Of a stretch of 64,000 bases of DNA, positions 31,829-47,774 are shown piece after piece. Location of the stretch: assembly GCF_001006005.1 (NCBI RefSeq), contig NZ_CP011254.1, positions 4,774,001 through 4,838,000 on the forward strand, in the 5' to 3' direction. Positions within the stretch are counted from its first letter, which is position 1. Each line of letters starts with the position of its first letter. The position numbers were made by a program, and so were the translations under genes. Below the pieces are notes generated by a model that ran no database searches, had not been told where the DNA came from, and worked only from the letters and a program-made list of their open reading frames with translations. Source of the DNA: Serratia fonticola. Lineage in GTDB: Bacteria > Pseudomonadota > Gammaproteobacteria > Enterobacterales > Enterobacteriaceae.

Positions 31829-32875
31829 TTACTTCATCGTTTTGGCATCGTTATTGGCATACACCTGATGGCGTTTGTGCATTTCCAGCGCGTCGTTGTA
31901 GTTGCTATACAAGGTCTGATAGCGCTCCAGGCAGTAAACGACCAGTAGCGGCAACAATGCACAAAGGTATAGCGGGATAAATTGCGGAGTGATCTGCAAT
32001 ACCGCAAACACCAGGCAGATCGCAATAGCCCACAGCTGCGAAGCCAGCAACCAGAGCAGACCACGCTGCCAACGTGTCAGCTTGCCGGTGAACGCCCAGG
32101 GAGCAGCAGGCGCAGAGTTGGCGTCCAGCGTGCCATTGAGTAACTCCCCAAACAACACATAGCGCCGCGTCCGGCTGGCAAACGCCAGCATAAACAGCGT
32201 CACCGCCCCCATCAGGATCATAAACGCGACGATAAAGGCAGGATCGGCGTAGCCGGGAGCCAGGCTAAATGCAGGCTTACGGGCAATCGGCAAGACCAGG
32301 GCGAAATTGGTTAACAGATTCAATAGCAAATCTTCGGCCACCAATCTTGGCAAACGGCGCTGCCGAGGTCGATAGGTTTCGGGCTCACTATAGGACTTCA
32401 AGGCCAGCAGGATATTGAACGGCGTTGATTTGCCTAGCTGAACCACCATTAATGCTGGCAGCACCAAGACACCAAGCAGCCCAATCAAGGGATAATGCCA
32501 GTTTGGGCCGCATAGCCATATCAGCCCGCTCAGTGCTGCCGCGAGGCACAGTATGACCAAAGAAGCCCAGCCAGGCTGGTACAGCAATTTCGCCATTCCT
32601 GCTATTTTACGCTCTTTATACTGCCCCGCGATCGCTTGCGGGTTTTTAAACACCCTCAAGGTAAATACGCTGTACGCCCAGTAGCCTTGACCATCGCGCA
32701 TCATACTCCAGACAATCGACAGACAGATTGCCCCCAACCCGGCGATCATCTCCGGCAGAGTAATATCAATGACGTTGCGGATCAGTGACGAGGTGAGAAT
32801 AGCCGAGACCAATACCACGGGGATCACGGCTCCTCGCATGTATCTTTGGCTGAAAGTAGTCAATGTTGGCATCAT
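31829..32875 (-). CDS. Polytopic membrane protein of the acyl-synthesis cluster
   Basis: A 348-residue protein with about eight hydrophobic helices and a basic cytoplasmic loop (PETYRPRQRRLPR). I do not recognise the family. The start is at one of two adjacent ATG codons (32875/32872), with AAGGG 4-7 nt upstream and only 7 bp after the malonyltransferase stop; the longer open frame reading into that gene is a shadow. As the final gene of the cluster, it could act in export of the product or as a membrane-bound transferase. No catalytic motif is visible. Confidence 0.7.
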   Translation of the reverse strand: MMPTLTTFSQRYMRGAVIPVVLVSAILTSSLIRNVIDITLPEMIAGLGAICLSIVWSMMRDGQGYWAYSVFTLRVFKNPQAIAGQYKERKIAGMAKLLYQPGWASLVILCLAAALSGLIWLCGPNWHYPLIGLLGVLVLPALMVVQLGKSTPFNILLALKSYSEPETYRPRQRRLPRLVAEDLLLNLLTNFALVLPIARKPAFSLAPGYADPAFIVAFMILMGAVTLFMLAFASRTRRYVLFGELLNGTLDANSAPAAPWAFTGKLTRWQRGLLWLLASQLWAIAICLVFAVLQITPQFIPLYLCALLPLLVVYCLERYQTLYSNYNDALEMHKRHQVYANNDAKTMK

Positions 32876-32882
32876 ATCGCCC

Positions 32883-33866
32883 TTATCCCGCATGCTTAAC
32901 ACTGCTGCCAACGAGATGGTAATAGTGTTGGATATGGTAATCCTCGTCAGCCCCGTAGTGCTCCGCCAACAGGTGGCTGAGGATTTTCTTGTTGCTGATC
33001 TCCAGATAGCGGCGATGTCCCATCTGGGCCCACCGATCCATACTTTCACGCCAGCGCACGGTATGGATAAGGTGCAACGCCAAATTTTCCTTGATCTGTG
33101 CCACGTCGTATTCCGCTTTACCACTGCTGTTCATGATCAGCGGGCAAACCGGCGAAGAGAATGGTAGGTCGGCCAATGCCTGGCGCATCTGTGCCACCCC
33201 ATCCTGCATCAACGGTGTATGCCAGGCACCATTGACGCCCAACTTGATGGTATTTACCCCAAGGCGCGCCAGATGATTAACCAGGGTTTTAACGGCGGTC
33301 AGTTCCCCTCCTACCACTTGCTGTTGGTGCCCGTTGTCACAGCACACGTTGAGTACGGTTCCCAACCCAAGATTGTCGATCTGCTCGCGCAGCGCATCAT
33401 GGCTGTAGGGCTTGACCACATACATCGCCCCTTTGCGCTGTTCGGCCAGGTTTTGCATGATGGTCGCGCGCAGCGTGATCGCACGGAACAGCGTTTCCAG
33501 ATCCATCACCCCGGCGGCATACAGCGCGGTATATTCACCTGCGCTATGCCCGGCATAACCGGTTTCCAACACGGGAGTCCGTTCGCGTAACAACGTCAGC
33601 ATGGCGGCGTTAACGGTGGTGACGGCCAACTGCTGATAAAGGGTTTTAGTCAGGCGTGTCATCGGCCCTTTCTGGCACAGCTTGCGTACATCCAGCCCGG
33701 AAACATCGCTGGCACAATCCCACACCGCCTTGGTGCCCGGTGAAACATCACAGACATCGCTGCCCATGCCGAGCGCCGGGGATCCTTGTCCTGGGAAAAT
33801 CATCATCCAACCGTCCGCGACGTTAGTTGCGGCCGGTGTATTACCAATTGATTCGCATACCTGCAT
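32883..33866 (-). CDS. Malonyl-CoA:ACP transacylase (FabD-like)
   Basis: A 327-residue acyltransferase. IFPGQGSPALGMG near the N-terminus, the nucleophile Ser108 in GHSAGEY, and His216 in GAWHTPLM form the expected malonyltransferase catalytic set. It loads extender units on the cluster's ACP. Longer than E. coli FabD by a C-terminal tail with several His residues. ATG 33866 is chosen since AAGGA lies 8-9 nt upstream; this makes it overlap the preceding beta-barrel gene by 26 bp. A second, cluster-specific FabD alongside the housekeeping one is typical of dedicated type II synthase loci. Confidence 0.9.
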   Translation of the reverse strand: MQVCESIGNTPAATNVADGWMMIFPGQGSPALGMGSDVCDVSPGTKAVWDCASDVSGLDVRKLCQKGPMTRLTKTLYQQLAVTTVNAAMLTLLRERTPVLETGYAGHSAGEYTALYAAGVMDLETLFRAITLRATIMQNLAEQRKGAMYVVKPYSHDALREQIDNLGLGTVLNVCCDNGHQQQVVGGELTAVKTLVNHLARLGVNTIKLGVNGAWHTPLMQDGVAQMRQALADLPFSSPVCPLIMNSSGKAEYDVAQIKENLALHLIHTVRWRESMDRWAQMGHRRYLEISNKKILSHLLAEHYGADEDYHIQHYYHLVGSSVKHAG

Positions 33867-35250
33867 AGATATTTCCTTTTTCTCCGAAGGTGCCAAACTC
33901 ACTCTCTTTACTGCCGAAGCTGGCGGCAACGCCGCTATAAGCCTCAATGTTGTTTTTGAGCGGCGTGCTCAGGTGCAGATTCAGCACGTTGCTGCCATCC
34001 ACCAGGTTGACCATGCCGGAGACCGACCAGTCGATACTGCCGACCTGCTCTTTATTGGTACGCGTATAGAGGGTGAGGTAGTGTTTGCCGAGCAGGTCGC
34101 CGCCCCGCCCGACGTTATCGGTTTCTGCCGCCATCATGCGGGAGTACTGCTGATAGCCGTTACGGATATCCGCCATGAACGATGGCGGTAGCGGTGGCAA
34201 TGACTGACCGTAACCCCCATTGACGAAGCGAATGGTGTCGACGTTGTCCTGCCACTCACTGCGGCTGTAGCCCTGGCTCTGACCATAATATTCCGCGCCG
34301 TATTCACTTTGATCGCCAGTGGTGTAACGCAGGCCAACACCGATATCCGCTTGCGCACCATTGGCGCGCACCTTGTACGGCTCCTGCACATTGGCAAGTT
34401 GGCGCATGGCACGTGCGGAAGCCATGTCCAGGTGACGCCAGGTCTGCCCATGGGAAATCGACCCCTCAACGCTGAGGATCAGCATATCCGTCAGGTTGCC
34501 ACTAGTGCCTAGCGCCACGGTTTTCCGATCGCCAGCCAGTAGCGAAAAAGTCGGGTTGAAGGCCTTCAGACCTGTCGCGGTATAACTGGCATAGTATCTG
34601 TCGGTACTGTTGGTGCGCAGGATCGCGTCCCATTCCGAGGCGGCTTCCTGACGCTGGTGGTTGCGCTTGAGGCGCGGAAAGGCCGCTAACGTGAAGGTCC
34701 CTTCGTTGCGGTACCATGAGCTGCTGATGCCATACGCCCCTTCATCATAGAAATTGCGCCCGCGCTCCCCCAAGCCAAATACCCGTACGCTACGCATATT
34801 GCCGTTGATATTGCGCAGCAGGTCGAGCGGCGCAACCGAGAACAGATAACCACTGGTTTTACGTACCTTACCGGCATCAATATACCCACTGTCGCTGACC
34901 GCCCAACTGGCAGTGGCTTCGTTGAGTATGCCCAGCCCCTGGCGGCGCTGATCTTCCAGGGCTCCCGGCTGACCTGCCTGGAGAGCGTATTCACCACTGG
35001 CCTGCGCCTTGACGCTGAGGGTCTCGGTCAACGTACAGCGGGCCACGCCGGAAAGGTACAGATTGGCAATAGCGTTGTTACGAAATGCCGGGTCGTCAAA
35101 CTGCCATAATGAGTCCGAGGTATGGGACGATATCCCCTCCATACCCGCGTAACCGCGTTGGATAAGACAGTCAACCGCCCAGCTGCTGCTACTATAGGCG
35201 CCCACCAGCAGCAGAACCCCGCTAATCGGGGATCGCCTGCTCGCCATCAA
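33841..35250 (-). CDS. Putative outer-membrane beta-barrel protein
   Basis: A 469-residue exported protein with a signal peptide (ISGVLLLVGAYSSSSWA) and long runs of alternating hydrophobic/polar strands rich in Tyr, Gly, Ser and Asn; it ends in GMRINW, with the terminal aromatic residue typical of barrels inserted by the Bam machinery. It overlaps the LolA-like gene by four bases (ATGA). In this context it may be the outer-membrane acceptor or transporter of the cluster product. It shares the pairing LolA-like plus barrel seen in some lipid-export loci. Family not identified. Confidence 0.7.
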   Translation of the reverse strand: MMASRRSPISGVLLLVGAYSSSSWAVDCLIQRGYAGMEGISSHTSDSLWQFDDPAFRNNAIANLYLSGVARCTLTETLSVKAQASGEYALQAGQPGALEDQRRQGLGILNEATASWAVSDSGYIDAGKVRKTSGYLFSVAPLDLLRNINGNMRSVRVFGLGERGRNFYDEGAYGISSSWYRNEGTFTLAAFPRLKRNHQRQEAASEWDAILRTNSTDRYYASYTATGLKAFNPTFSLLAGDRKTVALGTSGNLTDMLILSVEGSISHGQTWRHLDMASARAMRQLANVQEPYKVRANGAQADIGVGLRYTTGDQSEYGAEYYGQSQGYSRSEWQDNVDTIRFVNGGYGQSLPPLPPSFMADIRNGYQQYSRMMAAETDNVGRGGDLLGKHYLTLYTRTNKEQVGSIDWSVSGMVNLVDGSNVLNLHLSTPLKNNIEAYSGVAASFGSKESEFGTFGEKGNIYAGMRINW

Positions 35251-36065
35251 CCGTTCAACCTCAGCAGATACTCTTTCTGGAAGTTACTTTCCGGCAACGA
35301 TTCCAACCGGATGTCGCTGTAACGCATGGTGGTGTAGTTATCCTTGCGCAGCGCGTCTTCCACCACGATGGTGGTGGGCCGCATCTGGCCTAACACCTGC
35401 TGATAATCGCGATAGTACGAGCGCTTGATCGGCACACCGTCGGCGGAAAGGAAGTCGGCCCGGCTAGGGAAACCGGTATCTTTTTCCACCCAGTAACTGA
35501 TCGCTGGATAAGTGACATAGGGCCAACGGCGCTGTAACGAAAGTTTGTAGCAGATCGTCTGGCCACAGGCCTCTTCACCCACCAGCCGGGAGATATAGGA
35601 GTAATCAAAGTCTGCGGCAACCACGTCACCGTTGGAGATCTGCCCCACCAGGCGTTGCTGGCGGGAAATGGGGATCGGACGCCGCAGGTCTGGAGCGTAA
35701 TACCACATTTTGTCCAGATCGGAGAGTAAGGCTTTGCCTTTGTCGCGTACCGGGGAGATAAAACGCACCAACGCACGCGCATCCCCTTTCTCTACCTGCT
35801 CCGAAGGCTTATAGAAGCGCATGGAAATATCCAGTACCTGCTGGTTTTCCGTGACATCACGCCCTCCCTTATGTTCCAGCAGTGTCAGCGTATAGCGGAA
35901 AGGCCGGTCGGGTGCCCTCACGCGATCGGCACGACGGATAATCTCACGGGCCTGCTGATCTTCCTGGGTCAGGCTGTTCAGTTGATGACGATCCAACAGA
36001 TCTGCCGCCTGAGCCACACCCGACAGACCCAGTAACACCAGGCATCCAGCTAATTGATATTTCAT
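35247..36065 (-). CDS. LolA-like periplasmic carrier / outer membrane lipoprotein-sorting protein
   Basis: A 272-residue protein with a clear signal peptide (MKYQLAGCLVLLGLSGVAQA) and the sequence pattern of the LolA-like sorting family (an early RVRAPDRPFRYTLTL strand, MWYYAPDLRRPIPIS, and a late ESLPESNFQKEYLLRL strand). The fold is an incomplete barrel with a hydrophobic cavity that shuttles acyl chains through the periplasm. The neighbouring LolD-like ATPase and LolE-like permease make a dedicated Lol-type route likely. Starts 23 bp after the enoyl-reductase gene. Confidence 0.8.
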   Translation of the reverse strand: MKYQLAGCLVLLGLSGVAQAADLLDRHQLNSLTQEDQQAREIIRRADRVRAPDRPFRYTLTLLEHKGGRDVTENQQVLDISMRFYKPSEQVEKGDARALVRFISPVRDKGKALLSDLDKMWYYAPDLRRPIPISRQQRLVGQISNGDVVAADFDYSYISRLVGEEACGQTICYKLSLQRRWPYVTYPAISYWVEKDTGFPSRADFLSADGVPIKRSYYRDYQQVLGQMRPTTIVVEDALRKDNYTTMRYSDIRLESLPESNFQKEYLLRLNG

Positions 36066-36088
36066 GGGAACGGTCCTTGTTTATGGGG

Positions 36089-36841
36089 CTATATATCCAG
36101 CATCATGCCAAGATCGGCAATAAGGGTGGAGCCACGTATGGCGCTCGACTGCTCAGAGACCAGAAACGCGGTAATGTTGGCCACTTCTTCCGGCTCCACC
36201 TTCCAGCGGCGCGGCGCGTTATTCCAACGTTCGAACATTGCTGACCACAGCTCGTCCAGGTACGGCAGCATATCGGTGTTCACCACCCCGGCGCAGATGC
36301 CGTTGACCCGGATATTGCGGTCATACAGTTCCACCTCCAGGTAGCTCACCAGATTTTCCAGTGCCGATTTAGCGATGCCGAGCGGGTATTTTTCCAATAC
36401 GCGCTGGCTGCCTAGACTGGAAATCACGCAGATCGTACCGCCCTGGGGCATCATCGGTACCACTTCTTGTACGCAGGCGGTGTTGCCGATCAGGTTGGTA
36501 TTGAGCAACAGCTTCCAGTCGCTGCGCGTCATGTCCATAAAGGCTTTGAACGGCGCGGCGGCGGCATTCAGCACCAGATGATCGATACGTTCGATCCCCT
36601 GCTGTCTGAGCTTTTTCATCATTTCACTGATATCGCGCGGTTCGGCGATATCCGCTTTGGCCAAAGTCACCTTCACGCGGGTTTCTGCTGCGACAAAGCG
36701 TTGCAGATTGGCCGCACTTTTCCCCTGATCCTTGCGGTAGTTGAGGATCAGGTCATAGCCCTCTTGCGCCAGTTTTTCGGCGATCGCCATACCAATGCCA
36801 CGGCCTGCGCCGGTAATGAGTACGGTTTGTCCCTTTGACAT
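36089..36841 (-). CDS. SDR enoyl-ACP reductase-like protein (FabL type)
   Basis: A 250-residue short-chain dehydrogenase with TGAGRGIGMAIAEKL cofactor loop and LVLNAAA in place of the classic NAG. The active-site region, ISSLGSQRVLEKYPLGIAKSA, resembles FabL enoyl reductases (wide Tyr-to-Lys spacing) rather than the YxxxK of ketoreductases; here the spacing is Y-x5-K. The C-terminal half (VRNIRVNG-like, IRGSTLIAD) also fits. It would saturate the 2-enoyl-ACP intermediate, completing a reductive elongation cycle. A ketoreductase role is an alternative. Confidence 0.65.
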   Translation of the reverse strand: MSKGQTVLITGAGRGIGMAIAEKLAQEGYDLILNYRKDQGKSAANLQRFVAAETRVKVTLAKADIAEPRDISEMMKKLRQQGIERIDHLVLNAAAAPFKAFMDMTRSDWKLLLNTNLIGNTACVQEVVPMMPQGGTICVISSLGSQRVLEKYPLGIAKSALENLVSYLEVELYDRNIRVNGICAGVVNTDMLPYLDELWSAMFERWNNAPRRWKVEPEEVANITAFLVSEQSSAIRGSTLIADLGMMLDI

Positions 36842-36862: not shown

Positions 36863-38188
36863 TTAAACAAAGCGGAACGCTTGCGCTATAACCAGTTTCG
36901 ATGCCCGGCGTGCCGGGATAATGGACGCTATCAATGCCGTCACCAGCGGCAACGCGCAGGAGAACCAGAACAGATTGAAGTCCTGATCCCACAGCACAAA
37001 GGCCAGATAGCCCTGGGTATAACCAGGCGAAGGCGGCATCGGTATGCCGTTGATATTGATCAGTGCAGCGATAAGAATGCCGAAGCTGACGCTCAGCGCC
37101 GAGCCAATAATGCCAATGATGATCCCTTCCAACACAAACAAGCGGCCAATATAGGCTTGGTTAAGACCGAGTGCGCGCAGCGTAGCGATTTCGCGGGTAC
37201 GCTCAATGACGTTCATCATCAACGTGTTGCCAATCATGAACACCACGATGACGCTGACGATGGATTTGATAAACAGGAAGATCCCTTCAAACAGATTCAC
37301 CACCTGATGATAGAAAATGGCCAACTCATCCCATGAGCGCGCCTCCAGCTTGAGCTGATGCTGGTCAATAAGCTGGTTGATCCGCGCTAACACTTCTTCG
37401 GTTTGGTTGGTGTCCTGCAGCATGATGATGATTTTACTGACATCCTGGGTCTGCAACAGACGCTGGGCCGTTTGCAGCGGCATCTTGATCGCCGTATCGT
37501 CGTATTCTTTGATGCCGGACTGGAAGACGCCGCGCACCTGAGAAGACATGGCGTTTTGCCCACCTTGCGGGTTGACCACCAACATATCGACCCAGTCGCC
37601 ATAGCCCGCCGACAAGGCATTGGCGATACCAGAACCCAGGGTGATGTCCTGCTGCTCAACCCGCGACAGGTCGCTACCAGAAATGATTTTATCCAGCGAG
37701 CCCAATACCAACGAGGTTAGAGGTTCGATCCCCACGCCGGTAAAGAAGGTGGAAGCCCCCTTGTCATACTGGGAAATGATGCCGGTAAACGCCAGTTGCC
37801 CGGTAATGGTGGCGATCTTCGGGGCAATCACCGGATCGGCCTGCAGGAGCTGTTTCACCTCATCGTAATTATCGATGGTGTACTGCAGCGAATTGTTGGC
37901 TCCACTGCTGAGGTAGCCTTGCTGATAAAGTTGAATATGCCCCAGGTTGGTGCGGATGGTTTGTTCTCGCAGCGCCCAGAACGAGTAATCGACAAACCCG
38001 CCAAAGATAAAGACCGCCACCCCTCCCAGAGTGATCGCCAGTAGCGTCACCCCGGAACGACGGCGCTGGCGAAACAGATTGAGGAAGGTGTAACGGATAT
38101 CGGTAGGTTTACGGATCGCCGTCACGATCACCACCAACAAGGCGTAAATGATAATTATGTTGGCAACCCAGAACAGGATATTCATCAT
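36863..38188 (-). CDS. ABC transporter permease, FtsX/LolE-MacB type
   Basis: A 441-residue inner-membrane protein: one N-terminal helix (FGGFVDYSFWALR region preceded by RRRSGVTLLAITLGGVAVFIF), a large periplasmic domain (about residues 75-305), then three C-terminal helices with the FtsX-type NVIERTREIATLRALG signature and the closing ASKLVIAQAFR. Such permeases pull lipids or lipoproteins from the inner membrane without transporting across it. It overlaps the preceding gene by four bases and pairs with the ATPase two genes upstream. Confidence 0.88.
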   Translation of the reverse strand: MMNILFWVANIIIIYALLVVIVTAIRKPTDIRYTFLNLFRQRRRSGVTLLAITLGGVAVFIFGGFVDYSFWALREQTIRTNLGHIQLYQQGYLSSGANNSLQYTIDNYDEVKQLLQADPVIAPKIATITGQLAFTGIISQYDKGASTFFTGVGIEPLTSLVLGSLDKIISGSDLSRVEQQDITLGSGIANALSAGYGDWVDMLVVNPQGGQNAMSSQVRGVFQSGIKEYDDTAIKMPLQTAQRLLQTQDVSKIIIMLQDTNQTEEVLARINQLIDQHQLKLEARSWDELAIFYHQVVNLFEGIFLFIKSIVSVIVVFMIGNTLMMNVIERTREIATLRALGLNQAYIGRLFVLEGIIIGIIGSALSVSFGILIAALININGIPMPPSPGYTQGYLAFVLWDQDFNLFWFSCALPLVTALIASIIPARRASKLVIAQAFRFV

Positions 38189-38827
38189 AGCGGCACCTCC
38201 GACAGCGGCTGGATGATGGCTTTGAGTTCAGCAGGCGTCCATTCAGGTGCCGTACTTTGCTCGGACAGACGTTTCCCCTCTGCGCCCTGCTGTGCCAACG
38301 CCGCCCAGGCCGCCTTGGCATCGGCCACACGTTGGCAACTGGCCAGCGCATGCGCGGACATCAGCGTGATCATCGGTTTCAAATCAGCGGGCACCGCCGG
38401 GTTCTGCTGCAAATAGTCCAGGTCTTTCAAGGCCACGACGCAACGGCCATGGGTAGCTGGAACAAATGCATCCATCCGCACACGCAGAAAGCGCATCTGC
38501 CAGTCGCTCCCTTCGCTTTCCGCCGCTTCATCTATGTAGAAAAAGCCCAGTTTTGAGGTTTCTGCCGCACGCATATAATTCTTCTTGGCCAGAAAATCCG
38601 TGGCCATAAACAGTTGCGCGTAGCCATAAAACATTTTGGCAATGTGGCGTTCCGGGTGCTGTTGATACAAGGCTTGCAACTGGTTGGCCGCACGGGTCAA
38701 CGTACTCATTGGTGCTTGGGAATTAACCGTCAGGATCGCCTTTAAGCTGGGGTTGTCCTGCGCTTCCGGCAAACCAGTGGCCTGCGACAGCCCACTGGCC
38801 AACACCAATAAAGTGACAGCGTAACGC

Positions 38828-38847
<20 letters not shown>
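38185..38847 (-). CDS. Exported alpha-helical protein between ABC transporter subunits
   Basis: A 220-residue protein with a signal peptide (SSLKRYAVTLLVLASGLSQATG) and a helical body with TPR-like spacing (NQLQALYQQHPERHIAKMFYGYAQLFMATDFLAKKNYMRAAE). Four Cys residues could pair in the periplasm. The start at 38847 has GGAGAG 7 nt upstream; a GTG/ATG 15 bp earlier lacks one. It is nested between ATPase and permease genes with overlaps at both ends, so it is probably a periplasmic accessory of this transporter. Family not recognised. Confidence 0.65.
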
Positions 38848-39537
<690 letters not shown>

Positions 39538-39541
<4 letters not shown>

Positions 39542-40617
39542 GATGTTCCCCGCTGATTTGACGGTAAGTGACAGGCTTGCGGTACCCAGTTCTCCAGCAA
39601 CCAGGCTCCTCCCTCACCGTCGAGCACACTCAACAAGCTGTGCCCGGTGATATTGCTTTGCAGTAGATACTGCCAGGCCAACGCCGGATTCATGCAGCCG
39701 CTGTCGCCGTAGAGTTCACTGAGCGAGACGCAAGCCAGACCGGCAGGCAACTGTTCAAACGCTTGCCGCTGCACGGCGCGAAATGACAGTGCCGGTGGTG
39801 TTACGCCCAACACGGCCTGGGTATCCGTAGCCAGATACCGCTTACAGTGGTCGGCCAGCTGCAGCGCGCGCCGCTGGGTAGAACCCGACAAGGCTTGATA
39901 GTCACTCAAATGCAGAGCAACGCCCTGGCCTGGTTGCTTTTTGAGGATCAGGCAACCGACACGCTCAACGCTGAACTGACTGTTGGCAGGGATCGGCCCC
40001 CGTTTGCTGGATGAAGGAAAGTGTTCGGCCTCAGAGAAAACCAACGCTGGGAAGCTACGGAATTGGCCACAGATGATGACGTTATCGGCCATATTACTGT
40101 TCAGGCAGTCTTGCGCCATCCGCAACGCACTCACCAAACCGTTACGCTCACCGCGCAATTTGCAGGTGAAATCCTTGATACCGTAATCCCTCACGATACC
40201 TTTGGGCAGAATATCGACGCTCAATGAGTCTCGCCAGCTATTGACCCCTTCAAATACCGATGCCTCGCCCCAGGAATCACAATAAATCAACGCATTACGC
40301 TCATTGCGCAGGCGAAACTCCCCTTTACTCCCCAACTGAGCCACCGCCTGAGCACAGGCCGCACTCATATCGTTCAACCAGCCACGATAATTGGCTTTAC
40401 GCAGCGCCTCTTCAGGCAGCATTTCACTGTCAATGCCGAAACGACGGAACAACCACTGGTCGCTGCCCGCTTTGGCGTTGGCTTTTTTATGCAACCAGGC
40501 TTCCCACACGTTGTACCAGCTAGGAAAAAACCGTTGCATCGGCGTGCAGGGTTCCAGCAGGGAAAACCCCACCAGATTGATGGCTGCCGCCGGTATCACT
40601 TGTTTAACCGTGTTCAT
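39538..40617 (-). CDS. Divergent ketosynthase-like (thiolase-fold) protein
   Basis: A 359-residue protein that looks like a strongly diverged beta-ketoacyl synthase. An internal GERNGLVSALRMAQDCL followed by ADNVIICGQFRSFPA matches the helix-strand after the nucleophile in thiolase-fold enzymes. The canonical Cys position is hard to place (a Cys lies at residue 152 in DFTCKLRGE), and no His-Gly-Thr-Gly motif is seen. It overlaps the KS-like gene upstream by 14 bp and the ATPase downstream by four. It could be a non-catalytic partner of the other ketosynthases or a priming enzyme. Confidence 0.55.
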
Positions 40618-41839
40618 CTACATCCTCACTGTTAGCGGAGATCACCATGGCGATGGCCGAGCCATCGAGCCCGATGCCAGACTTGAGGATGTGCTGCCGT
40701 TTCAGTGCCAACGGCGGGCTATCGGCATGAACATGAATTTGCAGACTGTCGTTAATCGGGTAACGCGTGGTCAGCGCCAGCAGACGACGTTGTTGTAGCG
40801 CATCCGCCGCCAGCATCAGATCCAGCAAACCACAGCAGCTCTCCATATAACCGACCTGCCCCTTGTAACTGACCACCGGAACCCCGCATTTCCCCCAGAC
40901 TTTTTGCAGCGCCATGGCTTCTGCCTTGTCGCTGGCGATCACCCCATTGGCATGAGGGAAAACGCAGGCGATATCTTGCGCGGTGAGCCCGGCTTCCAGC
41001 AGTGCCCGCTCAAACGTCTGGGCGATGGTGCGGAAATCCGCCGTGAAGGAACTGCTACCCCTGGCACCGCTGCTCTGGCAAAACACTGAGCTGCGCAAAT
41101 TAACAGGCGAAGTAAAGTTGCGCTGACGAGCGTGTTGCTCGCTTTCAACGATCAGCGCCACGACACCGTTGGTGGGTAGAATGCAGCTGTTATGGCTGCT
41201 AAACGGTTGTGAACCCTCTTCCCCCAGCATGTCCTGGCCCCCCAGGAAGACAATGTCCTGCGTCATCGTTTCAAACCAGCCAACGACCAGCACCAAATCA
41301 ACCTCATTGGCAGCAATGGCCGAGTGGGCCAAATGGACCGCCGCTAAAGAAGAGTTGCTGGCGCAATAAAGTGAAACCGGTGGCCAACTGAGCTGATAAC
41401 TTTGCGTCAGCTGTCGCGCCAGCCGATCCTGACCGTAACTCTTGGCATGCAGCCGTTTGATTTTTGGAAATAACCGCAGCTCTTCCTGGTCGTTGCGCTC
41501 CTGATACCCCATAAAATCAGCAATGTCGGGCCGTTCACCATGGCCAACCAGATAAACTCGAACCCGCTTTCCCTGCAATTGATCCGTTGTCATCCCAGCT
41601 CCGGCAAGCGCCTGATTGATAACCGGTTGCAGGCGGGTAAACGTCGTACCGGCTGGCTGAGGGTCAGCAACATGGTGCGGGTTGCAACTCAAACGCAGAT
41701 CCTGCCATTCGCTTTCGGTGGCGAACCAGGGCTGTGTGCTGGCCAACCTGTTTTCGCTCAGGCCCTTGATCAGCGCCGGACAATCCGGCGCATAAGCACT
41801 GGTGACGCCCCAACCACTCAGGACGACATTCTGAATCAC
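40604..41839 (-). CDS. Ketosynthase-like protein with degenerate active site
   Basis: A 411-residue member of the beta-ketoacyl synthase fold (SGWGVTSAYAP start, SLAAVHLAHSAI after the nucleophile elbow, a FPHANGVIASDKAEA segment in place of the first catalytic His motif). When aligned to FabF the nucleophile position appears to be Ser161 (SLYCASNSSLA), with a Cys two residues earlier, and the second catalytic His (in GHxxGAAG) is Tyr (QVGYMESCCG). It is therefore probably a chain-length-factor-like or structural partner. It overlaps the KS-CLF fusion by four bases. Confidence 0.75.
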   Translation of the reverse strand: MIQNVVLSGWGVTSAYAPDCPALIKGLSENRLASTQPWFATESEWQDLRLSCNPHHVADPQPAGTTFTRLQPVINQALAGAGMTTDQLQGKRVRVYLVGHGERPDIADFMGYQERNDQEELRLFPKIKRLHAKSYGQDRLARQLTQSYQLSWPPVSLYCASNSSLAAVHLAHSAIAANEVDLVLVVGWFETMTQDIVFLGGQDMLGEEGSQPFSSHNSCILPTNGVVALIVESEQHARQRNFTSPVNLRSSVFCQSSGARGSSSFTADFRTIAQTFERALLEAGLTAQDIACVFPHANGVIASDKAEAMALQKVWGKCGVPVVSYKGQVGYMESCCGLLDLMLAADALQQRRLLALTTRYPINDSLQIHVHADSPPLALKRQHILKSGIGLDGSAIAMVISANSEDVDEHG

Positions 41840-44394
41840 GCCAGACTCCTCAGCACCACGGCATAGTGATTGCCGCCTTCCGTTGCGCCGAGCACCAGAG
41901 CGTTACGGACGATTTTCTTCAGCGGTTGGGTGACAAAGGCGATATCCTCCGCACAGAAGTTTTCGGTGTAAGGGATCGGCAGGATTTCACCCCGCTTCAT
42001 AATCTCCGTGACCACCGCGATATTGAGGATACCGACGCAGGACTCCACCAGACCAAACCAGGCGTTGTAGTTAACAAACGGCAGGTTACGGCGAGCCTCA
42101 CCGAAGGCGCTACGGATCGCCCCAATCTCAACGGCATCACGGGCGGCAGTACCATCACTGGTGCCACAGATCAGATCCACCTCTTGCGGCTCAATGTCGG
42201 CTTCGTGCAATGCCTGACGAATGGCCACCGCCATGGACTCGATCCGCGCTGGCATATCATCCTTGGCGAAGTAGCAGCCATCGCTGGATTTGCCATAGCC
42301 GACAATCTCGGCGTGAATGTGGGCGCCACGATCCTGGGCATGCTGTAAATCTTCAATCAGCAGCATGCCCGCACCTTCACCTGGGATATAGCCTTTGGCG
42401 TCCTTGCTGTAGATCTGGAAATCAGCTGGGTCGTGAGTCAGCAGCAGATCGCTGTTCAGCGCCTGCAGGCAGATGACGAAGGTGTTCATATTTTCATCCG
42501 CCCCCCCTACAATCATCTGCGGTTGCAGATCCTGGCGGACCAACTCGTAGCCGTAAGTCAATGCGCCCAAACCGGCATTGATACCTGTGGCCAGTGAGGT
42601 GTTATAGCCCTTGATCCCTTCAGAAATGGAACAGAAGGTCGAAATGGCATTCATCAGCGCACCTGGAAATTCGGAGGTCCGCACTTTGGTTGGGTCAGGG
42701 AACAGGCTTTGCAGGTAACGATCCACCGTCGAATGCGGCCCTTTGGACATGCCAAGGATCATGCCAATCGACTGACCGTCCCGTTTGATCTTACGCCCGG
42801 CGTCATTCATGGCTTGGGTAAGAGCCAGTAACGCAAAGGTACTGATGGTATTGGCTTTACGCGGGTCAAAGCGGCGTAGTGTCTTACGGGCATCCAACCC
42901 TTGCACCTGATGCACCCCGCCCGGTTTGTTCAGCTCATATTCCACATCCTGTGCGCCGAAGCGGTTACTCATGTAGTTAGCCACACCCTGGTTTTTCAGC
43001 ATGACATTGAGTAATTCACGAAATCCATGGCGTGTATCGTCATCGAGCTCCGGTGAGAAAAGTTGTGACAGTGGCTTCTGCGCCCACATTGTTTCCAGCA
43101 TGCTTTGCAAGGTGTGGCCCACCGAATTGACGGCCCCCATGCCGGTGATCGCGACGCGTTTGGGTTGATAATGCGTTACCGGACTTTGCTCAGGCTTGAC
43201 GCTGGCAATCACACAGCAGTTATTACCGCCAAAGGCATAGTTGTTCTTCATGAACATCTTGACTTCGGCTTCCTGGAACTCGTTGGGCACGTAGTTGAGA
43301 TCGCAGTTTGCGCGCGGCGTAGTGAAGTTGAGCGTTGGCAGGATCTTGTTTTCCGGCAAGGTCAGGAAGCAGGCGGTCAGCTCAATGATCCCGGCGGCGC
43401 CGATATTGTGCCCCACATAAGCCTTGGTTGAACTCACCGGAATAGCCATGATATTCGGGAAGACCTTCTTCATGGCCAGCGTTTCGCAGCGATCGTTAGC
43501 ATCTGTGCCGGTACCGTGGGCGTTGATATAATCAATATCCTGCGGCCCAATCTCGGCATTCTGCATCGCATGGCGCATCACCTGTACTGCCCCTTCGGCC
43601 CGAGGGTCTGGGGCAGTCTCGTGATAGGCATCGCAAGAGGTGGCGTAAGAGACCATCTCGCCATAGATCGTCGCGCCACGAGCGACGGCATGTTCATATT
43701 CCTCCAGCAACAAAGCGCCAGCACCTTCACCAACCGACATCCCTGGAGCACCGGAGAACGGGCTGGACGGCGTACGTTTCATGGCATGGAGAGCGTAAAA
43801 TCCGGCAAAGGTCGGCAGATAGACAGGCTCGGTACCAATCACCAACACCGTGGCATTCTTGCCGTTCTGGATCAGGTCATAACCAATCCCCATCGCATTG
43901 GTACTGGCCGTACAGGCGGTAGCGACCAGTTCAAAGCCCCCTTTCAGCCCCAGCAGTGAAGAGACAATGGCGCTACAGGAAGAAAAACTGCCGGAGACCA
44001 TGGCCTTCTTCAACGAGAAGCGCTCCGTTTGACGTTCGATCAGCGGCATAAAAGGCTCGGTACCGGCAGAGGAAACGCCGATGATCAGCCCGGTTCTATC
44101 CCGTAGTTCTCCGCGTGGTAACTGCCCTTGCTGCAAAGCCTCATGGCCAACCTTATAGGCCCACAACGAAGCATTATCCAAAGAGGCAACGGTATCAGCA
44201 GGGAGATCGGGCCAACTCAGAGGCTGTAATACCTCGGAGGCGTTCGCATCCTCGAACCATTCCAGGTACTTTTTACTGGGCTTGATCCCACAGGTTTTAT
44301 TCAGCAGTGCCTGTTTGAACTCGGCAACGTTAGTGGCAATGGAAGAGAGGTGACCCATACCGGTGATCACCACTCGTTTACGCGTGACTGTCAT
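41836..44394 (-). CDS. Fused ketosynthase / chain-length-factor-like protein
   Basis: An 852-residue protein made of two complete KS-fold halves. The N-terminal half (1-~410) is an intact FabF-type ketosynthase: nucleophile Cys161 in VATACTASTNAMG, His293 in NAHGTGTDAND, His329 in KAYVGHNIGAAG. The C-terminal half (~412-852) keeps the fold (AITGMGAVNSVG, IPGEGAGMLLIEDL) but its nucleophile is Ile605 (SLATGINAGL), and both His motifs are lost (LICGTSDGT and FGLVESCVG). This is the KS-alpha/KS-beta pairing of type II polyketide synthases fused in one chain. ATG 44394 (GGAAG upstream) is preferred to a longer frame starting inside the GcvT-like gene. Confidence 0.88.
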   Translation of the reverse strand: MTVTRKRVVITGMGHLSSIATNVAEFKQALLNKTCGIKPSKKYLEWFEDANASEVLQPLSWPDLPADTVASLDNASLWAYKVGHEALQQGQLPRGELRDRTGLIIGVSSAGTEPFMPLIERQTERFSLKKAMVSGSFSSCSAIVSSLLGLKGGFELVATACTASTNAMGIGYDLIQNGKNATVLVIGTEPVYLPTFAGFYALHAMKRTPSSPFSGAPGMSVGEGAGALLLEEYEHAVARGATIYGEMVSYATSCDAYHETAPDPRAEGAVQVMRHAMQNAEIGPQDIDYINAHGTGTDANDRCETLAMKKVFPNIMAIPVSSTKAYVGHNIGAAGIIELTACFLTLPENKILPTLNFTTPRANCDLNYVPNEFQEAEVKMFMKNNYAFGGNNCCVIASVKPEQSPVTHYQPKRVAITGMGAVNSVGHTLQSMLETMWAQKPLSQLFSPELDDDTRHGFRELLNVMLKNQGVANYMSNRFGAQDVEYELNKPGGVHQVQGLDARKTLRRFDPRKANTISTFALLALTQAMNDAGRKIKRDGQSIGMILGMSKGPHSTVDRYLQSLFPDPTKVRTSEFPGALMNAISTFCSISEGIKGYNTSLATGINAGLGALTYGYELVRQDLQPQMIVGGADENMNTFVICLQALNSDLLLTHDPADFQIYSKDAKGYIPGEGAGMLLIEDLQHAQDRGAHIHAEIVGYGKSSDGCYFAKDDMPARIESMAVAIRQALHEADIEPQEVDLICGTSDGTAARDAVEIGAIRSAFGEARRNLPFVNYNAWFGLVESCVGILNIAVVTEIMKRGEILPIPYTENFCAEDIAFVTQPLKKIVRNALVLGATEGGNHYAVVLRSLA

Positions 44395-44433
44395 AGTGTC
44401 TTCCGTGTCAGCAAACCAGAAATCGAATGTGAG

Positions 44434-44455: not shown

Positions 44456-44486
44456 AAATAACGTGATGCTTTAGGGAGTGTTCGGC

Positions 44487-45683
44487 TTACTCGTTCTCTT
44501 CTCTCAGCTTTTGCCATTCAAGCTGTTGCAACAAATCGCGTGGGCGCGAGCTGTCGACATAACTGTGTTCAGAAGGATTAATCAGGAAGCTGTAGTTACG
44601 GGCAAAAGGCACCGCCGACGTAGTCACCGCCACCGGGCCATTAGCCGTCACCACGTGGTAGCCATCAATGTCTGCCCAAGCCCAGGCATCGGTCAGGAAC
44701 AAACGGCCAAGGCAGGCTTGCAGATCTGCCGAGTAATCGCAGACGATCACTTCACCGATGCAGTTACCGTCAAACATCACTTTGTCGCCGCGCTGCGGGA
44801 TGGCGTCCGGTTTCCCGGCAATGCTCATCCCCACGATACGGTGGCTGATGCCCTGCTCTACGCGTTCGTTCAAACTTGCCAGGCCGGTGAAAGCGTCTTT
44901 GTCGTAACGCACTGCCCACTGCATTTGCAATGCGATCGGGCAGCCGGTGTAGGCATTGAACATGCCAGGTTCCCAGCAAGGGTTTTCCAGGCGCACTTTC
45001 CGCTGGTAGTTCAGCCCACCGGTACGCATGTCGTACTTTTCGCCAGCCTCCAGCATCTGGGTCCAAACATCGGCCAGCAGATCCTGTGGCCCCATCAGTT
45101 TGTAAGAGTACTCGCCGTGTTTGCCGCTGCGCAGCAGGATCAGATCGTCCTCAACGTGCATATGTTCCTGGTATGGCAAGCCAATCACATCCATCCCATA
45201 AACTTCAGCAAGCAGTTCCCAGGCGTACGGCCCTTCAAAGTGCAACATGCCCCACTCTGGCGTCAGCGATTCGATCGAGTCGATTTCCTCAAACTCGTCT
45301 TCATTGCCAGCCAGCTTGGCACGCAGCATCTCGCACAGCGTTTCACCGCTGACCCACTCCGACAGCAACAGAAAACGTTCGTCATCACAGGCGATATACA
45401 GGTCGGTAATGATATTGCCAGCCTCATCGAGGATCAGACTGTACATGGCTTGCTCATCCCGGATCGATGAAACATCGCCGGAAACCAGCTGGTTAAGCAA
45501 CGACCAGGCGCTGTCACCGTTGATGGCCGCGATGCCAAAATGGGAGTAGTCGGACAACAGAATGTGTTGACGTACCGCCTTGTGCTCCTCTTCCGCTGCA
45601 AAATAACTCAGGGGAATGGCAGCGCCGTTACGCTCCCCCATTACCGCCCCGTGCTGCCGATGAATGTCAGTGAGTTTGGTCAT
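44487..45683 (-). CDS. GcvT-family (aminomethyltransferase-like) protein
   Basis: A 398-residue protein of the glycine-cleavage T-protein/YgfZ family: GIAAINGDSAWSLLNQLVSGDVSSI, the MYSLILDEAGNIITDLYI segment (folate-binding core, acidic residues kept) and a C-terminal barrel with QRGDKVMFDGNCIGEV and SADLQACLGRLFL. These proteins bind tetrahydrofolate and move one-carbon units or demethylate substrates. There is no gcvH/gcvP nearby; instead it overlaps the ACP gene by four bases, so it probably works on the cluster's acyl intermediate or its amine precursor. Such a partner for a type II synthase is unusual. Confidence 0.82.
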   Translation of the reverse strand: MTKLTDIHRQHGAVMGERNGAAIPLSYFAAEEEHKAVRQHILLSDYSHFGIAAINGDSAWSLLNQLVSGDVSSIRDEQAMYSLILDEAGNIITDLYIACDDERFLLLSEWVSGETLCEMLRAKLAGNEDEFEEIDSIESLTPEWGMLHFEGPYAWELLAEVYGMDVIGLPYQEHMHVEDDLILLRSGKHGEYSYKLMGPQDLLADVWTQMLEAGEKYDMRTGGLNYQRKVRLENPCWEPGMFNAYTGCPIALQMQWAVRYDKDAFTGLASLNERVEQGISHRIVGMSIAGKPDAIPQRGDKVMFDGNCIGEVIVCDYSADLQACLGRLFLTDAWAWADIDGYHVVTANGPVAVTTSAVPFARNYSFLINPSEHSYVDSSRPRDLLQQLEWQKLREENE

Positions 45684-46003
45684 TCCTTGTCCGCTCCTGT
45701 TGCTGATCCGTTGGTGGTTTCCCCCTGCTTGGCAATAACAAACGAAGTCAGGGTGTTGACGCTACGCATGTAGGAAGGATCGTCACCTTCTGTCACACGG
45801 ATGCCGAAGATTTCATCGAGCAACACGACGACCTCGGTGGCATCCACCGAATCCAGCTTCAACCCACTACCAAACAGCGGCGTGTCATCGTCAATCTGAC
45901 TGACTTTCTGATAGAGGTTCAGGCGTTCTATTAGCCCCGTTTTGATTTTCTCCAGCACAGACTTGCGCTGTTCAATCCTTGCAATAAGCGCGATGTTACT
46001 CAT
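45680..46003 (-). CDS. Acyl carrier protein
   Basis: A 107-residue carrier protein with a four-helix ACP pattern and the phosphopantetheine attachment Ser52 in LKLDSVDATEVVVLLDEIFGI. It has ~15 extra residues at the N-terminus and an unstructured tail. It overlaps the GcvT-like gene by four bases (ATGA). The cognate activating enzyme is probably the AcpS-type transferase encoded first in the cluster. It is not the housekeeping acpP, which differs in length and context. Confidence 0.93.
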   Translation of the reverse strand: MSNIALIARIEQRKSVLEKIKTGLIERLNLYQKVSQIDDDTPLFGSGLKLDSVDATEVVVLLDEIFGIRVTEGDDPSYMRSVNTLTSFVIAKQGETTNGSATGADKE

Positions 46004-46024
46004 AGCGGCATTACTCCCTGTTAG

Positions 46025-46612
46025 TTAAACGTACATACCTTTGCCTTCAGCCAGAATGCGATCGGTGCGAAAATTGACAATCCGCCCGGCGCACGCCACA
46101 TTCCGGCCAACCCGCGCCTCCACTTCGTAGTGGTGGAACCCGTTCATATCGGCGAACGCCAGGCGGCTATTGACTTCAATGGTGTCGCCCGGCGCGACCA
46201 TGCTTTTGTACTTGACGTCCTGAGAGGCCAGCACGCCTAACACGCGCGCCCGCTCGGCTATCACTCGTGCCGTGCCCTCTGGCGTCTGCAGCGCCCGCGA
46301 TACCTCATCAAATTTCTTCAAGGGTTGCTGGGTTTCTCGTTCATGCAACTGGCAAAAATCGTTCAGCAGACTCAGGTATTCACTAGACTGGCCGAAGATC
46401 TCGGCGATCATCACGCCAGGCATTACCGGATTGTCTGGAAAATGCCCCGGAATATAGGATTCATTAAAGGTGACGTGCTTGATCACGGTAATCGACCCTC
46501 TTTCTCCCGGTGAAAAGTCCACGATGCGGTCGACCATAAATATCGGTGCACGCCAGGACCCCATTTTCAGCAGCAGATTGGGCTGGACTAAGCTCTTGTT
46601 ATAATTCGCCAT
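46025..46612 (-). CDS. 3-hydroxyacyl-ACP dehydratase, FabZ-like hotdog protein
   Basis: A 195-residue hotdog-fold enzyme. The active-site helix reads GHFPDNPVMPGVMIAEIFGQ, giving the catalytic His57 and Glu71 of FabZ/FabA enzymes. It is about 45 residues longer than E. coli FabZ, with an insertion rich in Gln/Glu after the active site. It would dehydrate the 3-hydroxyacyl-ACP made by the adjacent ketoreductase. Seventeen bases separate it from that gene. Confidence 0.93.
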   Translation of the reverse strand: MANYNKSLVQPNLLLKMGSWRAPIFMVDRIVDFSPGERGSITVIKHVTFNESYIPGHFPDNPVMPGVMIAEIFGQSSEYLSLLNDFCQLHERETQQPLKKFDEVSRALQTPEGTARVIAERARVLGVLASQDVKYKSMVAPGDTIEVNSRLAFADMNGFHHYEVEARVGRNVACAGRIVNFRTDRILAEGKGMYV

Positions 46613-46628
46613 ACAACATTCCTGTCGG

Positions 46629-47384
46629 TTAACGCATCACCAGGCCGCCATCGGCCACCAAGGTCTGACCAACGATATAGCTGGATGCGTCTGAACTTAA
46701 GAAAGCCACCACGTTGGCGATCTCGTCGACACGACCAAGACGTTTCAACGGGATAGCGGACATTACGTTGCGCACTATCTGGCGCGGCACCTTTTTCACC
46801 ATTCTGGATTCAATCATCCCCGGTGCCACGGCATTGACGCGGATCCCCTTCGAGGCCATTTCGCTGGCCAGGGTGCGGGTAAGGCCAATAATGCCGGCCT
46901 TGGCGGCGCTGTAATTGCTCTGGCCAAAGCTGGAGGTGATGCCGGATATCGAAGATATATTCACCACCGTTGAATTGCGGGCGTGACGCAATAATGGCAG
47001 CAACCGTTTGGTCATGGTAAAGGTGCCATACAGATTGACCTTGATAACCTGATCAAACTCTTCATACGTCAGCGCAGAAAATACGTTGTCTTTGTAGATC
47101 CCGGCATTATTAATCAACACATGCACCTCATGAGCCTGTTTCTCAAGCTCATCGGCCAGGCTGGACACCTCGCTGACATCGGCAACATTGCACTGCAGGA
47201 TATGCAGATTTTCACCCTGCGGATGGGCGGATTTTAATTTTTCCAGACCGCTATTATCGTGATGGTAAATAGCGAATACCTTAGCCTGCTGTTCGAGATA
47301 CTTCTCACAAATGGCCAAGCCAATATCACCACTGGCGCCGGTGATAACTACATTTTTACCCCCGATATCGGGATAGTGAGACAT
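46629..47384 (-). CDS. 3-oxoacyl-ACP reductase, FabG-like
   Basis: A 251-residue SDR ketoreductase with ITGASGDIGLAI cofactor loop, INNAGIYKD, catalytic Ser (VNISSISG), and Tyr158/Lys162 in SNYSAAKAG. The C-terminus (YIVGQTLVADGGLVMR) is typical FabG. It reduces the 3-ketoacyl-ACP made by the ketosynthase using NADPH. Second gene of the cluster, 21 bp after the AcpS-type gene. Confidence 0.93.
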   Translation of the reverse strand: MSHYPDIGGKNVVITGASGDIGLAICEKYLEQQAKVFAIYHHDNSGLEKLKSAHPQGENLHILQCNVADVSEVSSLADELEKQAHEVHVLINNAGIYKDNVFSALTYEEFDQVIKVNLYGTFTMTKRLLPLLRHARNSTVVNISSISGITSSFGQSNYSAAKAGIIGLTRTLASEMASKGIRVNAVAPGMIESRMVKKVPRQIVRNVMSAIPLKRLGRVDEIANVVAFLSSDASSYIVGQTLVADGGLVMR

Positions 47385-47405
47385 AGATATTCCCTTACTT
47401 TATAA

Positions 47406-47774
47406 TTAACCCAATGCCGCTGCGGCAATGGCATGTGACTGACAATGAGAAATGCTCAGCGTGGCGTGAGTCAATTTTTTCTCCTGCATCAATCTGGCAA
47501 ATTCACCGCTGAAGAAATAATAAGGGCAGCCCAAATCATCGTGTCTTATTTCGATGTCGTGGAATAGGATCCCCAGGCGGAACCCGGTACCGAGCGCTTT
47601 CACCGCCGCCTCTTTGGCCGCCCAGAAGCCAGCCAGTCGTTCGACGTTTTCGGCCAAATCCCCCAGTGCCTGCTGCTCTAGCGGGGTTAACAAACGTTGT
47701 GACAGCCTATCGCCACTTCGCATTAACGCGGTGTTTACCCGTGCGATCTCAATAATGTCCACACCAAGATTCAT
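47406..47774 (-). CDS. AcpS-type holo-ACP synthase (4'-phosphopantetheinyl transferase)
   Basis: A 122-residue single-domain transferase with the magnesium-binding Asp in LGVDIIEIARV and the WAAKEAAVKALG motif of the AcpS group. It moves phosphopantetheine from CoA onto the ACP Ser. Being a second copy outside the usual pdxJ-acpS context and first in this operon, it is presumably specific for the cluster ACP. The upstream gap is long and AT-rich, the likely operon promoter. Confidence 0.93.
   Translation of the reverse strand: MNLGVDIIEIARVNTALMRSGDRLSQRLLTPLEQQALGDLAENVERLAGFWAAKEAAVKALGTGFRLGILFHDIEIRHDDLGCPYYFFSGEFARLMQEKKLTHATLSISHCQSHAIAAAALG

What the first reader, a model, noticed from the sequence alone, without database searches (positions are those of the whole stretch)
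31829..47774. Sixteen-gene cluster coupling a complete type II fatty-acid/polyketide synthase to a Lol-like envelope export system
Seen: sixteen minus-strand genes, almost all overlapping or within about 25 bp. They include AcpS, FabG-, FabZ- and FabL-like enzymes, ACP, a KS-CLF fusion, two KS-like proteins, a malonyltransferase, a GcvT-like protein, LolD-like ATPase, FtsX/LolE-like permease, an exported helical protein, a LolA-like carrier, a beta-barrel and a polytopic membrane protein. Known: aryl polyene/xanthomonadin loci pair a type II synthase with a LolA-like protein, but with an MMPL exporter and aromatic-primer genes, none of which I see. Inference: a novel acyl product, perhaps a surface lipid, is made and shipped to the outer membrane.
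Basis: partly seen in the sequence, partly recalled or inferred. Interest (0 to 1): 0.88.

Follow-up and report, generated by a model that had tools for sequence, protein, structure and literature searches.

The report
Mobile lipid factory with dedicated exporter
A run of sixteen co-directed genes in a Serratia-like bacterium appears to build an unknown long-chain fat, probably with many double bonds, and carry it to the outer membrane; the same set sits in several hundred E. coli genomes and has left scraps in about two thousand more, yet its product is unknown.

Summary
In detail: sixteen intact minus-strand genes (31829-47774) encode a complete reducing type II synthase (PPTase, MAT, ACP, KR, DH, FabL-like SDR, KS-CLF fusion), a second KS/CLF-like pair, a GcvT-like protein and a LolD/FtsX/LolA-like/beta-barrel export set.

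It is a conserved, patchy cassette: all 31 named loci found (Serratia, Erwinia, Pantoea, Rahnella, Pseudomonas, Paraburkholderia, Acinetobacter and others) carry it, mostly in the same order. It covers 368 of 5,426 complete E. coli genomes; about 2,200 more, K-12 included, keep only its 3' end (ymdE-ycdU). I recall that EDL933's copy was noted in 2001 as a 'polyketide or fatty-acid' island; I found no characterised product.

Nearest in kind is the Gram-positive cyl (granadaene) group; a GcvT-like gene beside a fused KS-CLF is also found in Priestia megaterium. It is not an aryl polyene cluster. In 394 genomes sampled, close FtsX and LolA-like homologues occur only with the synthase, but distant FtsX-LolA pairs exist without it.

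Best reading: an outer-membrane-directed, probably polyenic acyl lipid. Polyene chemistry, the GcvT role and transport are inferred, not shown. New variant of a known kind.

The parts
47406..47774 (-). g01 AcpS-type phosphopantetheinyl transferase
   Evidence: PF01648, 65 bits
46629..47384 (-). g02 FabG-type ketoreductase
   Evidence: adh_short_C2 207 bits; 33% to ApeQ, 36% to Priestia FabG
46025..46612 (-). g03 FabZ/FabA-type dehydratase
   Evidence: PF07977 60 bits; FabZ model 81.6 bits, below its cut-off 113
45680..46003 (-). g04 acyl carrier protein
   Evidence: PF00550; Ser52 in 33 of 33 rows; 37% to Priestia ACP
44487..45683 (-). g05 GcvT-like (aminomethyltransferase-fold) protein with altered cofactor-site residues
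   Evidence: GCV_T 132 bits; residue survey
41836..44394 (-). g06 fused ketosynthase-chain length factor (longest ORF runs to 44517)
   Evidence: two ketoacyl synthase domains; C202, H334, H370 in 32 of 32 rows, Ala or Ser in place of Cys in the second half; start
40604..41839 (-). g07 KS-like protein: nucleophile position C/T/S, His296 kept, second His replaced by Tyr331
   Evidence: hhalign to the KS half 99.2%
39538..40617 (-). g08 KS/CLF-fold protein without Pfam family; C-terminus looks fused to the tail of a deleted accessory gene
   Evidence: no Pfam; AF2 and Foldseek; tails compared by eye
38828..39541 (-). g09 LolD-like ABC ATPase
   Evidence: TIGR02211 233.6 bits, below its cut-off 307.75
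38185..38862 (-). g10 helical protein with N-terminal signal-like sequence (judged by eye)
   Evidence: no significant family; found in 32 of 32 loci
36863..38188 (-). g11 FtsX/LolE-like permease
   Evidence: PF02687, PF12704; lolCE 114.8 bits, below its cut-off 362.45
36089..36841 (-). g12 SDR, FabL-like (putative enoyl reductase), absent in 10 of 32 loci
   Evidence: adh_short_C2 184 bits; presence; FabL likeness judged by eye from a recalled motif
35247..36065 (-). g13 LolA-like periplasmic carrier
   Evidence: PF17131 136 bits; only copy over the cut-off in the genome
33841..35250 (-). g14 outer-membrane-type beta-barrel with two Cys (C28, C72) invariant in 14 rows
   Evidence: AF2 pLDDT 73.8, porin/AlgE matches
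32883..33866 (-). g15 malonyl transferase (longest ORF runs to 33947)
   Evidence: PF00698 87 bits; Ser135 and His243 in 6 of 6 long rows
31829..32893 (-). g16 polytopic membrane protein of the YcdU family (longest ORF runs to 33124)
   Evidence: 22% to K-12 YcdU, 3e-11; hydropathy peaks

Best explanation
A horizontally spread operon for a surface lipid. AcpS charges the dedicated ACP; MAT loads malonate; the fused KS-CLF sets chain length by repeated condensation; FabG and FabZ reduce and dehydrate each beta-keto unit. The cassette's own enoyl reductase candidate (g12) is optional, so the core product is most likely a conjugated polyene acyl chain, partly saturated where g12 is present. The g07-g08 pair is read as a KS/CLF-fold dimer that is unlikely to be a classical decarboxylating KS (second His is Tyr, nucleophile is C, S or T); it most likely primes the chain or hands it to an acceptor. 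The GcvT-like protein modifies the starter, acceptor or ACP-bound chain in a one-carbon or amino-group reaction. LolD-FtsX extracts the lipid from the inner membrane, the LolA-like protein ferries it, and the barrel helps place it in or across the outer membrane. Shown: gene content, active-site residues, conserved order, co-occurrence. Inferred: polyene, g07-g08 pairing, roles of g05, g07 and g08, direction of transport.
For: Intact operon with a complete synthase set. g01-g11 in one order in 32 of 32 loci from Enterobacterales, Pseudomonas, Acinetobacter and Paraburkholderia. FtsX and LolA-like homologues above a wide gap in score occur in the six KS-CLF genomes and in none of the other 388 sampled. 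The KS half sits in a clade (SH-aLRT 97) with ApeO of aryl polyene, E. eligens and Gram-positive fused KS. Priestia megaterium has adjacent FabG-ACP-FabZ-GcvT-KS-CLF, and its KS-CLF relatives (best 120 of 1,238 listed) include Thermosporothrix, Paenisporosarcina, Clostridium and Bacillus, taxa named for cyl operons in PMC6985545 (section 7). Ten of 32 loci lack g12. Patchy distribution, 6 of 394 in the order and 4 of 7 in the genus; GcvT and KS-CLF of this kind lie on Rahnella and Enterobacter plasmids.
Against: No product is known; host FabI could supply the missing enoyl reduction and give a saturated chain (a cispentacin study invokes FabI in this way, passages of PMC10698177). I know of no pigment phenotype for carriers (recall, not searched). 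GcvT of Priestia is only 24% identical, barely nearer than canonical GcvT, and lacks the catalytic Asp. The fused KS-CLF clusters of E. eligens, Pseudalkalibacillus and two Streptomyces have no GcvT-like ORF in the stretches read (tblastn), so a fused KS-CLF alone does not imply this pathway. The tree is a quick one without bootstraps, ApeO sits on a long branch, and the CLF halves did not group as one origin. FtsX-LolA_like pairs also occur without the synthase. The KS-CLF ORF is shortened in 2 of 32 loci, L050 and L055.
Confidence: 0.6

Rival explanations
1. The cassette makes a special acyl group that is attached to a lipoprotein or glycolipid, and the LolDE/LolA-like set carries the acylated lipoprotein rather than a free lipid.
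For: LolD/FtsX/LolA-like families are best known for lipoproteins; g09 and g11 score to LolD and LolCE models below cut-off; g16 is an uncharacterised polytopic membrane protein that could be the acyltransferase.
Against: None of the 16 genes matches a lipoprotein family, though no lipoprotein-signal search was run. LolC/E over the cut-off are present elsewhere in the genome.
Confidence: 0.17
2. A saturated or hydroxylated secondary fatty acid (dedicated FAS), not a polyene.
For: FabL-like SDR in 22 of 32 loci; host FabI is available.
Against: Ten of 32 loci have no reductase of that kind; the synthase uses a KS-CLF fusion, and its KS half falls with ApeO and Gram-positive fused KS rather than with the genome's own FabF-like KS.
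Confidence: 0.17
3. An aryl polyene/xanthomonadin variant.
For: FabG, FabZ, ACP, KS and a LolA-like gene; the CFT073 aryl polyene locus lies in a dgcT-linked island like this cassette in EDL933.
Against: No MMPL exporter and no acyl-ACP synthetase; one ACP instead of two; own AcpS, GcvT and fused KS-CLF; ApeL (LolA family) gives no hit to g13 at 1e-3.
Confidence: 0.02
4. A cispentacin/coronafacate-like ring-forming synthase, with g07-g08 as a KS-CYF pair.
For: Best NCBIfam model for g07 is AmcF (69 bits, cut-off 325); g08 is a KS-fold protein without known motifs, like AmcG as described (passages of PMC10698177).
Against: No adenylating AmcH or aminotransferase AmcC among the 16; the main synthase is an elongating KS-CLF; the g07 Cys is Ser or Thr in 17 of the 32 rows that have a residue there.
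Confidence: 0.04

Closest known systems
E. coli O157:H7 EDL933 and O145:H28 locus acpS...ycdU (EDL933 O-island 47 by recall)
   Same: Same order of 15 genes, acpS to ycdU.
   Different: Lacks the FabL-like SDR; 22-64% protein identity to the window (O145 copy); sits in an island with fimbrial and two-partner secretion genes.
cyl operon (granadaene) of Gram-positive bacteria
   Same: PPTase, MAT, KR, ACP, DH, GcvT-like protein, KS, ABC exporter (PMC6985545: abstract and sections 7 and 8 read).
   Different: No CylE-like acyltransferase or glycosyltransferase recognised; Lol-like export with periplasmic and outer-membrane parts; extra KS/CLF-like pair. No cyl protein was compared directly.
Priestia megaterium pBM500 cluster
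   Same: FabG-ACP-FabZ-GcvT-KS/CLF fusion side by side, plus PPTase and MAT.
   Different: Thioesterase and MFS genes, no Lol-like set in the stretch read; GcvT lacks the catalytic Asp. Its product is unknown to me.
Aryl polyene cluster of E. coli CFT073
   Same: Reducing type II synthase plus a LolA-family carrier; also in a dgcT-linked island.
   Different: MMPL exporter, starter activation, two ACPs, separate KS and CLF, no GcvT.
Cispentacin AmcF-AmcG (KS-CYF)
   Same: A KS-like protein with a motif-less KS-fold partner.
   Different: Sequence similarity far below the family cut-off; other amc genes absent.

Membership tests
Highly reducing type II PKS | KS with Cys-His-His paired with a CLF lacking the Cys | tested here: met
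   32 of 32 rows; one further row (L050, short) was dropped
Highly reducing type II PKS | Discrete ACP, KR and DH | tested here: met
Highly reducing type II PKS | Polyene product | not testable with these tools
   no chemistry available
cyl (granadaene) operon | KR, ACP, DH and PPTase genes | tested here: met
   present by family; orthology to cyl genes not tested
cyl (granadaene) operon | CylF (aminomethyltransferase) orthologue | tested here: inconclusive
   same fold family and same neighbour as in Priestia, 24% identity; CylF itself was not compared
cyl (granadaene) operon | CylE acyltransferase, universal in cyl operons per PMC6985545 section 7 | tested here: inconclusive
   no such domain recognised in the 16 genes; CylE was not compared directly
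cyl (granadaene) operon | Glycosyltransferase | tested here: not met
   no gene assigned to such a family among the 16
Aryl polyene cluster | MMPL/RND exporter | tested here: not met
   absent from the 16 genes and from 30 other window ORFs scanned, not all of them
Aryl polyene cluster | Aromatic starter activation (ApeH-type ligase) | tested here: not met
Lol lipoprotein system | LolD and LolC/E at family cut-off | tested here: not met
   g09 233.6 of 307.75 and g11 114.8 of 362.45 bits; LolC/E over the cut-off lie elsewhere in the genome
Glycine cleavage T protein | Catalytic Asp and the other canonical site residues | tested here: not met
   Asp94 in 32 of 32, but Tyr188 is Lys in 30 of 32, Glu195 in 0 of 32, Arg227 is Gln in 30 of 32; Tyr, Glu and Arg in 12 of 12 canonical GcvTs; residue roles recalled

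The most novel reading that the evidence does not exclude
A third Gram-negative route to a surface polyene lipid, beside aryl polyenes and xanthomonadins, in which a remodelled GcvT works on a dedicated ACP (pantetheine taking the place of the lipoyl arm) to install or remove a one-carbon or amino group, and a non-decarboxylating KS/CLF-fold dimer hands the chain to its acceptor. Nearly half of complete E. coli genomes carry it or its remains (2,580 of 5,426 hold the ymdE-ycdU end), so many E. coli, K-12 included, would descend from producers.
Probability: 0.3. Interest if true: 0.82.

Novelty: new variant of a known kind. Interest (0 to 1): 0.62.

Why it matters
It joins three loose ends: an unexplained E. 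coli island, two K-12 genes of unknown function (ymdE and ycdU, reported as part of a mastitis-strain core genome in PMC4951805, passages), and the unexplained GcvT-like gene of the granadaene operon. If the product is an exported lipid, it would be a widespread envelope component or secreted lipid that standard annotation lists as separate fatty-acid and lipoprotein genes. It would also show that a Lol-like machine carries a polyketide-type lipid. The question is testable by one clean deletion and lipidomics in an environmental strain.

Tried and rejected
Aryl polyene membership: rejected on gene content. Common origin of the Gram-negative and Gram-positive KS-CLF fusion: tested by tree and left open, because the CLF halves sit on long branches. 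A first tree contained wrong-strand translations of own-genome KS genes and was discarded; a second attempt failed; one search replaced them. In one search three canonical GcvT translations (L015, L019, L027) were also wrong-strand; strands were set explicitly. hhalign of g08 to KS and CLF profiles gave no significant match; the fold search settled it. A 360-aa unnamed protein beside the Pseudalkalibacillus KS-CLF was checked as a possible GcvT and is an alpha/beta-hydrolase-like protein instead. Sigma-70 and terminator scans were near the shuffles. GC content of the cluster (52-56%) does not stand out. No tRNA in the window. Ten literature searches (open-licence PMC only, top rows listed) showed no paper on this cluster's product; that is the limit of the claim. 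Passages of a type II PKS catalogue (PMC10132072) and of a review of E. coli islands (PMC7545054) did not mention it. Perna 2001 is not held, so the O-island 47 description is recall.
Full report
What is there. Sixteen minus-strand genes run from 47774 down to 31829. With the likely starts they overlap by 4-35 bp or lie 16-23 bp apart, except for 92 bp between g05 and g06. In order: AcpS, FabG, FabZ-like dehydratase, ACP, GcvT-like protein, fused KS-CLF, KS-like g07, g08, LolD-like ATPase, exported helical protein, FtsX-like permease, FabL-like SDR, LolA-like carrier, beta-barrel, malonyl transferase and a polytopic membrane protein. Neighbours (Hcp and DUF1240 genes on one side, OmpA-family and penicillin-binding genes on the other) look unrelated. 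The genome is one 6.0 Mb contig.

Catalytic anatomy. In an alignment of 32 KS-CLF rows (window plus 31 loci; the short L050 row was dropped) Cys202, His334 and His370 are invariant, and the matching position in the second half is Ala (28) or Ser (4): an active-looking KS joined to a chain length factor. ACP Ser52 is invariant in 33 of 33 rows. The MAT Ser and His are kept in 6 of 6 long rows; the other MAT hits were short, mostly where loci end. g07 keeps one His (33 of 33), has Tyr instead of the second His (33 of 33), and has Cys 15, Thr 9, Ser 8 and one gap at the nucleophile position; so it is unlikely to be a decarboxylating KS but could be an acyltransferase. g08 has no Pfam family and no significant profile match to KS, but its predicted structure (pLDDT 87.9) matches KS, FabH, OleA and KS/CLF structures, with the ishigamide KS/CLF second. 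I read g07-g08 as a second condensing-fold pair, which is inference; g07's best NCBIfam model is AmcF of cispentacin, far below its cut-off.

The GcvT-like protein. The family (32 rows over 350 aa; L050 dropped) keeps the Asp that is catalytic in T-proteins (Asp94, aligned with Thermotoga position 96; role recalled). It has lost Tyr188, Glu195 and Arg227 of the canonical site, which are present in 12 of 12 canonical GcvTs. It is therefore probably not an ordinary glycine-cleavage enzyme. PMC6985545 (abstract and sections 7 and 8 read) calls CylF universally conserved in cyl operons and proposes ammonia supply; that is a proposal, not a test. Priestia megaterium pBM500 carries FabG, ACP, FabZ, GcvT and fused KS-CLF side by side, with 24-37% identity to the window proteins. 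Four other fused KS-CLF clusters read here (E. eligens, Pseudalkalibacillus, two Streptomyces) have no GcvT-like ORF in the stretches shown (tblastn at E 0.1). So the GcvT/KS-CLF pair marks a subset, which includes the Priestia type and, if their KS is of this kind, the cyl operons of the paper.

Distribution. One scan of the species-genome collection with a six-sequence GcvT profile gave 31 loci, all with the cassette: Serratia, Erwinia, Winslowiella, Pantoea, Kosakonia, Rahnella, Buttiauxella, Edaphovirga, Pseudomonas, Paraburkholderia, Acinetobacter and others, some of them MAGs. The scan needs one of two short peptides, so it misses distant relatives. In all 32 loci (31 plus E. coli L071) g01-g11 and g13 were found; in four Pseudomonas loci g13-g16 come first. 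g14 was found in 26, g15 in 14 and g16 in 4; many loci end before these genes, and g16 diverges. The KS-CLF ORF is short in L050 and L055. Within the order it is rare, 6 of 394 genomes, and 4 of 7 in the genus. GcvT and KS-CLF of this kind are on plasmids of Rahnella and Enterobacter.

E. coli. A 14.8-kb query from O145:H28 is covered to at least 80% in 368 of 5,426 complete genomes. The K-12 ymdE-ycdU stretch is found at 80% coverage or more in 2,580 of 5,426. K-12 YcdU is 99.7% identical to the last protein of the O145 cluster, and the ymdE pseudogene is identical to the last 100 residues of its MAT. So about 2,200 genomes (2,580 minus 368, if the 368 are all among them), K-12 included, carry only the 3' end. 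EDL933 carries the whole 15-gene set downstream of dgcT, beyond fimbrial and two-partner secretion genes. I recall, without having been able to read it, that the 2001 EDL933 paper listed O-island 47 as 'adhesin and polyketide or fatty-acid biosynthesis'. CFT073 carries its aryl polyene cluster in a dgcT-linked region with the same kinds of integrase and two-partner secretion genes, inside the interval that PMC7545054 lists as PAI-CFT073-serX (passages). PMC4951805 (passages) reports ymdE and ycdU as part of a mastitis-strain core genome and without known function; a later paper questions a mastitis pathotype (PMC5422975, title and passages).

Export. In the same 394 genomes the six with the KS-CLF are the only ones with a FtsX homologue at E<1e-140 and the only ones with a LolA-like homologue at E<1e-78. 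Against exclusivity: weaker FtsX homologues at E<=1e-30 are in 43 further genomes and weaker LolA-like ones at E<=1e-20 in five; in G354, G288, G180 and G114 the two lie next to each other (28-38% identity) without this KS-CLF. The module is thus probably older and was recruited. The genome has separate LolC/E genes over the family cut-off, and g13 is its only PF17131 protein over the cut-off.

Interpretation. The gene set, the KS tree (SH-aLRT 97 clade with ApeO and Gram-positive fused KS; quick tree, long branches) and the absence of g12 in 10 of 32 loci point to a reducing type II synthase whose core product is probably a polyene chain. The polyene, the acceptor, the role of GcvT and the transport step are inferences. 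The window's own copy seems to have lost an accessory gene: six relatives have a 630-900 bp space between g08 and g09, and the three of these that I read hold an ORF with a weak, below-cut-off match to DUF6134. The window's g08 ends in residues resembling the tail of that ORF in L040.

Noticed in passing
L074 10545-11830 (K-12 MG1655): ymdE and ycdU of E. coli K-12 are the 3' remains of this cassette; 2,580 of 5,426 complete E. coli genomes carry this stretch.
   Followed up: yes
L083, L084 (CFT073) and L090, L093 (EDL933): The aryl polyene cluster and this cassette each lie in a dgcT-linked island with two-partner secretion genes and the same kind of integrase, as if exchangeable.
   Followed up: partly
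window 39538-39600; L040 16144-16884: An ORF with a weak DUF6134 match present between g08 and g09 in some relatives is missing in the window; the g08 tail looks fused to its last residues.
   Followed up: partly
G000:C1 near 502560, 2741247 and 3503826: Three very similar KS genes elsewhere in the genome each lie about 1.5 kb from a hit to the lolCE permease model: another KS-ABC exporter association.
   Followed up: no
window 28001-32000: GC dip to 44% around an Hcp gene and two DUF1240 genes just downstream of the operon.
   Followed up: no
window 21551-27893: A gene without Pfam hit, SrfB and a Virul_Fac gene in a row, of unknown function here.
   Followed up: no
L046: A MAG labelled Paraburkholderia carries a version whose KS groups with Paraburkholderia caffeinitolerans and an Enterobacterales MAG; transfer or misbinning not resolved.
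   Followed up: no
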